Positions 49,762 through 51,472 of a DNA stretch of 64,000 bases are shown here, in pieces. The notes beneath the pieces are model-generated. The model was not told where the DNA came from, searched no databases, and was given only the letters and a program-made list of their open reading frames with translations. Within the stretch, counting starts at the first letter, position 1, and each line of letters begins with the position of its first letter. The translations under genes were made by a program, and so were the position numbers. The stretch comes from Bacteroidota bacterium (GTDB lineage Bacteria; Bacteroidota; Bacteroidia; 2-12-FULL-35-15): the NCBI GenBank assembly GCA_947504725.1, contig CANNHN010000003.1, positions 276,945 through 340,944 of the forward strand. Reading direction: 5' to 3'.

Positions 49762-50025
49762 ATGAGCTCAAATGTAAATGAAATAAAAGAAACCGTTAGA
49801 GAATTTGTTAAAAACAGGTTTCTGAAAAATTCGGACGGACTTGAATTAACTTATTCAACTCCACTTATTAGTGGTGGAATAATTGATTCAATTCTCACTA
49901 TGCAATTGGTTGTGTTTTTGGAACAAACCTATTCATTCGAATTTCAAGCGCATGAAGTGGATAAAGACAATTTGGATACTATCGAAATTATAGCAGCTTT
50001 TGTAGTTAAAAAGCAGAATGGATAA
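49762..50025 (+). CDS. Acyl/peptidyl carrier protein
   Basis: TPLISGGIIDSILTMQLVVFLEQTYSFEF with GxxDS phosphopantetheine Ser. Confidence 0.88.
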   Translation: MSSNVNEIKETVREFVKNRFLKNSDGLELTYSTPLISGGIIDSILTMQLVVFLEQTYSFEFQAHEVDKDNLDTIEIIAAFVVKKQNG

Positions 50026-51472
50026 AATCGAAAAATTACATGAACTATTAGAAGTTTCAGCCGGACTATTTCCGGACAACATTGCTGTTTGCTATTTAGA
50101 TCGTTCAATTACTTATCACCAATTAAATAGTTCTTCAAATTTAATTTCAGATGATCTTAAAGCTATCGGAGCAAAGGAAGGGAGCCGTGTTGCTATTTGT
50201 GCTCCAAAGTCCATTGATTTTGTCTCTTCTATTTTTGGAATTTTAAAATCAGGCGCAGCATATTTGCCAGTTGATTATAGTTCTCCCATTGAAAGGAATA
50301 AGTTTATTATTCAAAATGGTGAAGTTTCTGCAATTATAATATCCAAAGAGTTATTTCATTATTTTGAAAGTGAATTCTCCTTTGTTTCAGATTTAGACAA
50401 TAATCTTGTTATCGCTAAAAATAACAATTCATTATCAAAAAAATCACCTCCTGATTTAGCTTATATCTTATATACTTCAGGTTCTACAGGTATTCCTAAA
50501 GGTGTCATGTATTCAAATAGTGCAGCTCTAGAGTTTGTAAATTGGAGCTCCGAAATTTTCAAGCCAAGTCATATAGATACATTTTCTTCGCATGCTCCTT
50601 TTCATTTTGATCTTTCAATTTTCGATTTGTTTGTTTCAATTAAACATGGAGCTAAACTAGTATTAATTAAAGAAGAAGTTGGGAAGCAACCTTTGCTATT
50701 AGCTAAATTGATTGCTGAACAAAAAATTTCGATTTGGTATTCTACTCCTTCAATTCTAAATATGCTTGCCGAATATGGCAAGATGGAAAAATATGATTTT
50801 GGAAATTTGAGGTTTATACTTTTTGCTGGTGAAGTTTTTCCAATAACCCAATTCAAGGTGCTGAAGAATAAAGTTCCAGCCGCAGTTTATTATAATTTAT
50901 ATGGGCCAACAGAAACAAATGTCTGCACGTATTACCGTTTAACCGATCAGCTGTATACCCAAATTCCAATTGGGAAGGTATGCGAACATTATCGATGTTT
51001 AATTGTTGATGAAGAGATCTTTATCCGAGGTTCAGGAGTGATGTTAGGTTATTGGAACTTACCTGAACAAGATGCTTTTTGGAAAGACTCTTCTAATAAC
51101 GTATGGTATAAAACGGGGGATTTAGTAGATATTGATGGGTCTGGGAATTATATTTTTAAAGGCCGGAGAGATAGAATGGTTAAACGTAACGGATATAGAA
51201 TCGAGTTGGATGAGATAGAAGTGGCTTTGGATAAGCATGATTTTATTAGTAAAAGTGCAGTTTTAGGGAATGCTAATAGTGACGGACAGATGATTATTTC
51301 GGCCATAATTTTATTGAAAACCGATGGAGAAAAATCAGTTATTAAAATGAAGGAATATTGTATGAATAACTTACCTTCGTATATGGTCCCGAACGATATT
51401 GTTTTTGTGGAGGATTTGCCATATACTTCAAGTCATAAGGTAGATTATCAAAAATTAAAACTACTTATTTAA
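50018..51472 (+). CDS. Stand-alone adenylation enzyme, predicted L-prolyl-[carrier protein] ligase
   Basis: LAYILYTSGSTGIPKGVMYSN, SSHAPFHFDLSIFDLFV, YNLYGPTETNVCTYY, YKTGDL; pocket residues DLFYLALVCK by hand alignment to GrsA. Confidence 0.85.
   Translation: MDKIEKLHELLEVSAGLFPDNIAVCYLDRSITYHQLNSSSNLISDDLKAIGAKEGSRVAICAPKSIDFVSSIFGILKSGAAYLPVDYSSPIERNKFIIQNGEVSAIIISKELFHYFESEFSFVSDLDNNLVIAKNNNSLSKKSPPDLAYILYTSGSTGIPKGVMYSNSAALEFVNWSSEIFKPSHIDTFSSHAPFHFDLSIFDLFVSIKHGAKLVLIKEEVGKQPLLLAKLIAEQKISIWYSTPSILNMLAEYGKMEKYDFGNLRFILFAGEVFPITQFKVLKNKVPAAVYYNLYGPTETNVCTYYRLTDQLYTQIPIGKVCEHYRCLIVDEEIFIRGSGVMLGYWNLPEQDAFWKDSSNNVWYKTGDLVDIDGSGNYIFKGRRDRMVKRNGYRIELDEIEVALDKHDFISKSAVLGNANSDGQMIISAIILLKTDGEKSVIKMKEYCMNNLPSYMVPNDIVFVEDLPYTSSHKVDYQKLKLLI

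What the first reader, a model, noticed from the sequence alone, without database searches (positions are those of the whole stretch)
50018..51472. Adenylation pocket reads DLFYLALVCK, the proline code of PltF-type ligases
Hand alignment to GrsA-PheA: FDLSIF gives D235, L236, F239; SIWYSTP gives Y278; FILFAGE gives L299, A301; YNLYGPTETNVC gives L322, V330, C331; SHKVD gives K517. The string equals the code I recall for the free-standing prolyl-AMP ligase PltF. The SHAPFHFDLSIFDLF segment is also typical of free-standing ligases of this type.
Basis: partly seen in the sequence, partly recalled or inferred. Interest (0 to 1): 0.85.

Follow-up and report, generated by a model that had tools for sequence, protein, structure and literature searches.

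The report
Dlt-like system that attaches pyrrole
This gene switches on proline as the first step of a small operon that appears to turn proline into a (probably halogenated) pyrrole and pass it through the membrane onto the outside of the cell, a kind of bacterial surface decoration for which I found no published description.

Summary
In detail: 50018-51472 encodes a free-standing adenylation enzyme whose pocket aligns as DLFYLALVCK. This matches the published consensus of stand-alone L-proline ligases, L(L/F)YLALVC (PMC3874040). Its AlphaFold model is closest to PltF and then PigI among solved structures.

Its setting is the more interesting part. The gene sits in a tight + strand operon: an MBOAT-SGNH membrane acyltransferase fused in one chain (best fold match DltB), a carrier protein, the prolyl ligase, a PigA/RedW/AnaB-type prolyl-carrier dehydrogenase, and a PltA/CmlS-type flavin halogenase. 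This matches the logic of Dlt D-alanylation, with proline-to-pyrrole chemistry replacing D-alanine.

The block transferase + carrier + ligase + dehydrogenase recurs in about ten phyla (28 of 37 long loci). In 399 sampled Bacteroidota genomes, the four with the transferase are exactly the four with this ligase clade, even where the genes lie far apart. An invariant Tyr-Tyr lies in the flexible linker between the transferase's two domains, where DltX and PatA carry their acyl-shuttle tyrosine.

Best explanation: pyrrole-2-carboxyl, probably halogenated in this branch, is loaded on the carrier and moved across the membrane onto an envelope acceptor. Acceptor, halogen and activity are not shown. 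I found no published description.

The parts
47187..49730 (+). MBOAT-SGNH fusion acyltransferase, 847 aa from ATG 47187 (TTG 47181 also possible). Residues numbered from ATG 47187: MBOAT His348 and His271; invariant Tyr535-Tyr536 in the linker (GYYxxL); SGNH Ser621 and His818.
   Evidence: No Pfam or NCBIfam hit. AF2 model pLDDT 85.5; fold search best hits DltB 6bug/8jem, then HHAT, then SGNH esterases. Catalytic residues invariant over 53 relatives and invariant or nearly so over 92.
49762..50025 (+). Peptidyl/acyl carrier protein, 87 aa; phosphopantetheine Ser43 in GGIIDSIL
   Evidence: Best PDB match is 6cxt_A, the Bmp1 carrier domain of a proline-to-pyrrole pathway (identity of the entry from memory). 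NCBIfam OlsHI ACP and DltC as weaker relatives. DS serine in 50 of 50 sequences.
50018..51472 (+). Stand-alone L-prolyl-AMP ligase, 484 aa, pocket DLFYLALVCK; overlaps the carrier gene by 8 bp
51472..52620 (+). Prolyl-carrier-protein dehydrogenase (acyl-CoA dehydrogenase fold), catalytic Glu245 in MEWER
   Evidence: NCBIfam PigA 420 bits and RedW 372 bits, below the curated cut-offs. PDB best is prolyl-ACP dehydrogenase 4irn (AnaB), then L-prolyl-PCP dehydrogenase 5zw0; Glu aligns with the residue that differs in 6af6. WER conserved in the relatives.
52655..54046 (+). Flavin-dependent halogenase of the PltA/CmlS/CndH class, 463 aa; GGGPSGS, Lys70, GWMWVIP (WxWxIP), FLDPIFSSG (FxxPxxSxG)
   Evidence: NCBIfam CmlS 190 bits. 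PDB 8zop, 3e1t, PltA, CmlS, 5buk, 5bul. Lys70, WxWxIP and FxxPxxSxG kept in 8 of 8 sequences, window included.
44973..46046 (+). Sulfotransferase (PF13469), conserved neighbour in the Bacteroidota branch; accessory
46070..47080 (-). Second sulfotransferase (PF13469), conserved neighbour; accessory
54053..56239 (.). Three Asp/Asn beta-hydroxylase-family proteins (54053-54769 -, 54766-55509 -, 55553-56239 +), nearest named models OlsC and LpxO lipid hydroxylases; accessory
56229..60888 (-). Conserved flank: GNAT (PseH-like), GT2 (ArnC/PgfS-like), SDR, KAS III, small putative ACP (59580-59816), KAS III; possible acceptor-sugar or acyl biosynthesis
   Evidence: synteny in L101, L103, L105, L008.

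Best explanation
The gene product charges L-proline onto the adjacent holo-carrier protein. The next gene oxidises prolyl-S-carrier to pyrrole-2-carboxyl-S-carrier, and in this branch the flavin halogenase halogenates the ring while it is still on the carrier. The MBOAT domain of the fusion protein then takes the acyl group from the carrier at the inner face of the membrane and places it on a tyrosine (Tyr535/Tyr536) in the linker. The linker carries it to the SGNH domain outside the cytoplasm, which esterifies it onto a hydroxyl of an envelope glycan or glycolipid. In short, it is a Dlt-type envelope acylation machine (ligase = DltA role, carrier = DltC, MBOAT-SGNH fusion = DltB + DltX + DltD) whose cargo is a proline-derived pyrrole instead of D-alanine. 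Shown by sequence or structure prediction: protein classes, pocket code, catalytic residues, operon and co-occurrence. Inferred: proline use, four-electron oxidation, halogenation, tyrosine shuttle, direction of transfer, acceptor.
For: Pocket code and fold match stand-alone prolyl ligases. Carrier, dehydrogenase and halogenase each have their best or near-best solved or named relatives in proline-to-pyrrole or related prolyl-carrier pathways. The fusion's best fold match is DltB, with SGNH esterases matching the C-terminal part. MBOAT His, SGNH Ser/His and a Tyr-Tyr in a disordered linker are conserved throughout, where PatA and DltX carry the acyl-shuttle tyrosine (PMC12148441). 28 of 37 long loci found by the transferase alone carry carrier + ligase + dehydrogenase within 9 kb, in about ten phyla. 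In 399 Bacteroidota genomes the transferase is in 4, and the same 4 hold the top-scoring ligases (616-801 bits; next 452), in two of them on another contig or millions of bases away. Chance of the same four is 1e-9 if genomes were independent. Ligases of transferase-bearing loci or genomes and those of NRPS clusters fall on opposite sides of one branch (94/94 support). The genome has a phosphopantetheinyl transferase.
Against: No biochemistry. Dehydrogenase and halogenase score below the curated NCBIfam equivalog cut-offs. AnaB, the best PDB match of the dehydrogenase, stops at the two-electron stage (from memory), so a pyrroline product is possible. The linker motif GYYxxL is not a literal FxYxxF. 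Nine of 37 long loci have the transferase without a recognised ligase nearby, so some family members may carry other acyl groups. The acceptor is unknown. Genomes are not independent, so the 1e-9 figure overstates significance.
Confidence: 0.66

Rival explanations
1. A soluble pyrrole natural product (pyoluteorin or marine-pyrrole style). The carrier-bound halopyrrole is released or built into a small molecule or lipid, and the MBOAT-SGNH protein acylates that molecule rather than an envelope polymer.
For: The ligase, carrier, dehydrogenase and halogenase are the classic natural-product set. Two KAS III genes, a putative ACP and an SDR lie downstream and are conserved in close relatives.
Against: No NRPS or PKS module in the operon. 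The constant partner across about ten phyla is the DltB-like MBOAT-SGNH fusion, including unlinked co-occurrence. NRPS-associated prolyl-type ligases in Bacteroidota fall outside this group.
Confidence: 0.17
2. The cargo is proline or pyrroline, not pyrrole: the system prolylates the surface, as Dlt alanylates it, or the dehydrogenase stops after two electrons.
For: The best PDB match of the dehydrogenase is AnaB, which makes a pyrroline (from memory). A charged amino-acid ester would act like D-alanine.
Against: NCBIfam ranks PigA and RedW first, both pyrrole-forming (from memory). The halogenase of the Bacteroidota branch belongs to a class acting on aromatic, carrier-bound pyrroles (from memory).
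Confidence: 0.12
3. The fifth gene is a flavin monooxygenase or reductase rather than a halogenase, so the pyrrole is hydroxylated or otherwise modified. (This rival concerns one step and can be true together with the main explanation.)
For: The superfamily includes QhpG and geranylgeranyl reductases, which also score. The CmlS model cut-off is not reached. Most loci outside Bacteroidota lack this gene.
Against: Lys70, WxWxIP and FxxPxxSxG are kept in 8 of 8 sequences. The best solved relatives are halogenases, including PltA.
Confidence: 0.3
4. The MBOAT-SGNH protein is an ordinary acyl-CoA-dependent O-acetyltransferase that merely lies next to an unrelated prolyl-carrier pathway.
For: The genome has other MBOAT-like proteins that match the model weakly. 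Some relatives of the fusion lack the ligase nearby.
Against: Adjacency repeated in about ten phyla and perfect co-occurrence in sampled Bacteroidota even when unlinked. Best fold match is DltB, which uses a carrier protein.
Confidence: 0.06

Closest known systems
Dlt D-alanylation pathway (DltA, DltC, DltB, DltX, DltD)
   Same: Amino-acid adenylating ligase, small carrier protein, MBOAT that takes a carrier-bound thioester, SGNH transferase; the fusion's best fold match is DltB.
   Different: Proline-type instead of D-alanine pocket; a dehydrogenase and a halogenase that can act on the carrier-bound acyl group; MBOAT and SGNH are one polypeptide; no separate DltX found; the host phylum Bacteroidota is not expected to make lipoteichoic acid.
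Proline-to-pyrrole carrier pathways (PltF/PltL/PltE/PltA of pyoluteorin; PigI/PigG/PigA of prodigiosin; RedM/RedO/RedW; Bmp)
   Same: Same order of steps: prolyl ligase, carrier, prolyl-carrier dehydrogenase, flavin halogenase; matching pocket code, folds and catalytic residues.
   Different: The likely offloading enzyme is a membrane MBOAT-SGNH fusion, not a PKS, NRPS or thioesterase; about 31-32% identity to PltF and PigI in the structural alignment.
MBOAT/SGNH envelope O-acetylation pairs (PatA/PatB, AlgI/AlgJ/AlgX)
   Same: MBOAT His, SGNH Ser/His, tyrosine after extra membrane helices as possible acyl shuttle (PMC12148441).
   Different: Those are two or more proteins using acyl-CoA and no carrier protein, according to PMC12148441; here one fused protein with an adjacent carrier protein.

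Membership tests
Stand-alone L-prolyl-AMP ligase (PltF type) | Pocket code L(L/F)YLALVC between Asp and Lys | tested here: met
   DLFYLALVCK; consensus in PMC3874040.
Stand-alone L-prolyl-AMP ligase (PltF type) | Fold and sequence nearest to PltF and PigI; no fused NRPS domains | tested here: met
   Fold search ranks 1-4 are PltF and PigI; 484 aa with AMP-binding and AMP-binding_C only.
Stand-alone L-prolyl-AMP ligase (PltF type) | L-proline-dependent ATP-PPi exchange | not testable with these tools
   Needs the purified enzyme.
Prolyl-carrier-protein dehydrogenase (PigA/RedW/PltE) | Curated NCBIfam equivalog cut-off | tested here: not met
   PigA 420 of 500 bits, RedW 372 of 650 bits.
Prolyl-carrier-protein dehydrogenase (PigA/RedW/PltE) | Catalytic Glu aligned with the residue that differs in 6af6 | tested here: met
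   WER motif, Glu245.
Prolyl-carrier-protein dehydrogenase (PigA/RedW/PltE) | Four-electron oxidation to pyrrole | not testable with these tools
   AnaB-like two-electron oxidation not excluded.
Flavin-dependent halogenase (PltA/CmlS class) | GxGxxG, WxWxIP, FxxPxxSxG and active-site Lys | tested here: met
   All present in the window; Lys, WxWxIP and FxxPxxSxG kept in 8 of 8 sequences.
Flavin-dependent halogenase (PltA/CmlS class) | Curated CmlS model cut-off | tested here: not met
   190 of 900 bits.
Flavin-dependent halogenase (PltA/CmlS class) | Halogenation activity on carrier-bound pyrrole | not testable with these tools
   Needs enzyme assay.
Dlt D-alanylation system | MBOAT of DltB fold with conserved His | tested here: met
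   6bug and 8jem are best fold hits; His348 invariant.
Dlt D-alanylation system | D-alanine-specific ligase DltA | tested here: not met
   Proline-type pocket; DltA models 286 and 293 bits, below cut-offs of 560 and 476.
Dlt D-alanylation system | DltX or MBOAT FxYxxF acyl-shuttle tyrosine | tested here: inconclusive
   Conserved Tyr-Tyr in GYYxxL in the linker, similar but not identical.
Dlt D-alanylation system | Lipoteichoic acid acceptor | not tested
   Acceptor unknown; Bacteroidota are not expected to make it.
MBOAT/SGNH O-acetylation pair (PatAB/AlgI type) | Separate MBOAT and SGNH proteins, no carrier protein | tested here: not met
   One 847-aa fusion with an adjacent carrier gene.

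The most novel reading that the evidence does not exclude
A previously undescribed, cross-phylum class of envelope modification in which a Dlt-like machine with an MBOAT-SGNH fusion exports proline-derived pyrrole-2-carboxyl groups, and in Bacteroidota halogenated pyrroles, onto a surface glycan or glycolipid through a tyrosine shuttle in the fusion's own linker.
Probability: 0.42. Interest if true: 0.85.

Novelty: new variant of a known kind. Interest (0 to 1): 0.68.

Why it matters
If true, bacteria of about ten phyla decorate their envelopes with an aromatic, sometimes halogenated, heterocycle made by enzymes known so far from antibiotics and pigments. That would extend Dlt-type acylation beyond D-alanine, place halogenation on cell-envelope material, and add a single-chain MBOAT-SGNH machine in which the tyrosine-shuttle mechanism could be tested. 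It would also mean that genome-mining tools may mistake these operons for small-molecule pyrrole clusters.

Tried and rejected
The viral collection scan gave no answer. I could not print the PltF alignment residue by residue, because the two-domain LgrA chains always rank first. I considered that the three PF05118 proteins are proline hydroxylases: the nearest solved structures of the two tested are Asp/Asn beta-hydroxylases and the nearest named models OlsC and LpxO, so this is unsupported. I looked for a conserved acceptor-gene family around the operon in other phyla and found only scattered glycosyltransferases, sulfotransferases and deacetylases, so the acceptor stays open. The promoter scan was no better than chance (34 against 33 expected). 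Ten literature searches gave no paper linking MBOAT with pyrrole or prolyl carriers; subscription journals are mostly outside that library.

Full report
Observation. The ORF at 50018-51472 (+) is a complete 484-aa stand-alone adenylation enzyme. [quoted passage not shown] The AlphaFold model (pLDDT 87) has PltF and PigI as its four best matches among solved structures, ahead of PheA and DltA. No assay was run.

Setting. The gene is the third of five tightly packed + strand genes. First is an 847-aa protein with no Pfam or NCBIfam match (47187-49730). An 87-aa carrier protein follows after 31 bp and overlaps the ligase by 8 bp. The dehydrogenase start codon overlaps the ligase stop codon, and the flavin enzyme starts 34 bp after the dehydrogenase. 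The carrier's best solved relative is 6cxt_A, which I know as the Bmp1 carrier domain. The dehydrogenase's are AnaB (4irn) and the L-prolyl-PCP dehydrogenase 5zw0/6af6, with the catalytic Glu kept. The flavin enzyme's are halogenases including PltA and CmlS, with Lys70, WxWxIP and FxxPxxSxG kept in 8 of 8 sequences.

The unnamed protein. AlphaFold gives a confident model (pLDDT 85.5). Its best structural matches are DltB (6bug, 8jem) and other MBOAT enzymes for the membrane part, and SGNH esterases for the C-terminal part. Over 53 diverse homologues, His271, His348, Tyr535, Tyr536, Ser621 and His818 are invariant; in a second set of 92 sequences from genomes, His348 and Tyr536 are invariant and the other three counted there (His271, Tyr535, His818) nearly so. 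The two tyrosines lie in the only stretch with pLDDT below 50 (530-560), between the last membrane helix and the SGNH domain. In DltX and PatA a tyrosine in a membrane-exit peptide carries the acyl group from MBOAT to SGNH (PMC12148441). That paper describes separate MBOAT and SGNH proteins, and carrier-protein use only for Dlt. The shuttle role here is inference; the motif is GYYxxL, not a literal FxYxxF.

Conservation. A scan of 85,488 species genomes with the transferase alone gave 240 places, 79 kept as loci, in Bacteroidota, Rhodothermota, Calditrichota, Gemmatimonadota, Acidobacteria, Verrucomicrobia, Planctomycetota, Hydrogenedentota, Myxococcota and Alpha-, Beta- and Gammaproteobacteria. 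Of 37 loci with at least 18 kb, 28 carry carrier + prolyl ligase + prolyl dehydrogenase within 9 kb. The halogenase is mostly limited to Bacteroidota. Elsewhere a Rieske oxygenase (Methylomonas, L081) or an O-methyltransferase-family protein (Acidobacteria, L036) sits within the operon region, as if the acyl group were tailored differently.

Independent test. In 399 Bacteroidota genomes the transferase family is found in four. The same four genomes hold the four best ligases (616-801 bits); the next best is 452 bits. In two of the four the transferase lies on a different contig or about 2.9 Mb away from a separate carrier-ligase-dehydrogenase operon. Three of the lower-scoring ligases were inspected: all lie beside larger proteins that hold further adenylation domains, as in NRPS clusters, with no transferase in the stretch read, and their pocket codes have drifted. 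On a maximum-likelihood tree the two sets fall on opposite sides of one branch (94/94). Within the window's genus 7 of 37 genomes carry the transferase, so it is an accessory trait.

Mechanism. Most likely: proline is adenylated and loaded, oxidised to pyrrole-2-carboxyl on the carrier, halogenated in this branch, moved by the MBOAT domain to a linker tyrosine, and esterified by the SGNH domain to an envelope acceptor. Steps supported by sequence or structure prediction: protein classes, pocket, catalytic residues, operon and co-occurrence. Steps inferred: everything chemical. The flanking genes shared by close relatives (sulfotransferases, OlsC/LpxO-type hydroxylases, GNAT, ArnC-like GT2, SDR, two KAS III, putative ACP) suggest a modified amino-sugar or lipid as acceptor, but only in this branch.

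Limits. Dehydrogenase and halogenase miss curated equivalog cut-offs. A two-electron (pyrroline) product, a non-halogenating flavin enzyme, or a soluble product remain possible. Nine of the 37 long loci have the transferase without a recognised ligase nearby. The loci were chosen by the transferase, so adjacency is conditional on it; the unlinked co-occurrence is the less biased test, though on only four genomes. The literature search covered open-access papers only and found no description.

Noticed in passing
56229-60888 (-): GNAT (PseH-like), ArnC/PgfS-like GT2, SDR, two KAS III and a small putative ACP form a second conserved block next to the operon in L101, L103, L105 and L008; it may build an N-acylated amino sugar or lipid.
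   Followed up: partly
44973-47080 and 54053-56239: Two PF13469 sulfotransferases and three PF05118 hydroxylases (nearest OlsC/LpxO models) travel with the operon in close relatives.
   Followed up: partly
L007:12615-18223: In the closest relative, two proteins with type IX secretion tails (1398 and 480 aa) lie between the transferase and carrier genes.
   Followed up: partly
L017, L018, L030, L069, L071, L073, L079: Tandem copies of the MBOAT-SGNH fusion, up to three in one locus, suggesting several acceptors or cargoes.
   Followed up: no
L022, L023, L034, L083: Transferase relatives near only distantly related AMP-forming ligases; they may carry other acyl groups.
   Followed up: no
L081:12817-14091 and L036:12685-13716: A Rieske oxygenase and an O-methyltransferase-family protein occur between carrier and ligase genes, possible alternative tailoring of the acyl group.
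   Followed up: partly
window 49762-50025: The carrier's best NCBIfam match is the ACP of the OlsHI ornithine-lipid pathway (85 bits, cut-off 130), a possible evolutionary link.
   Followed up: no
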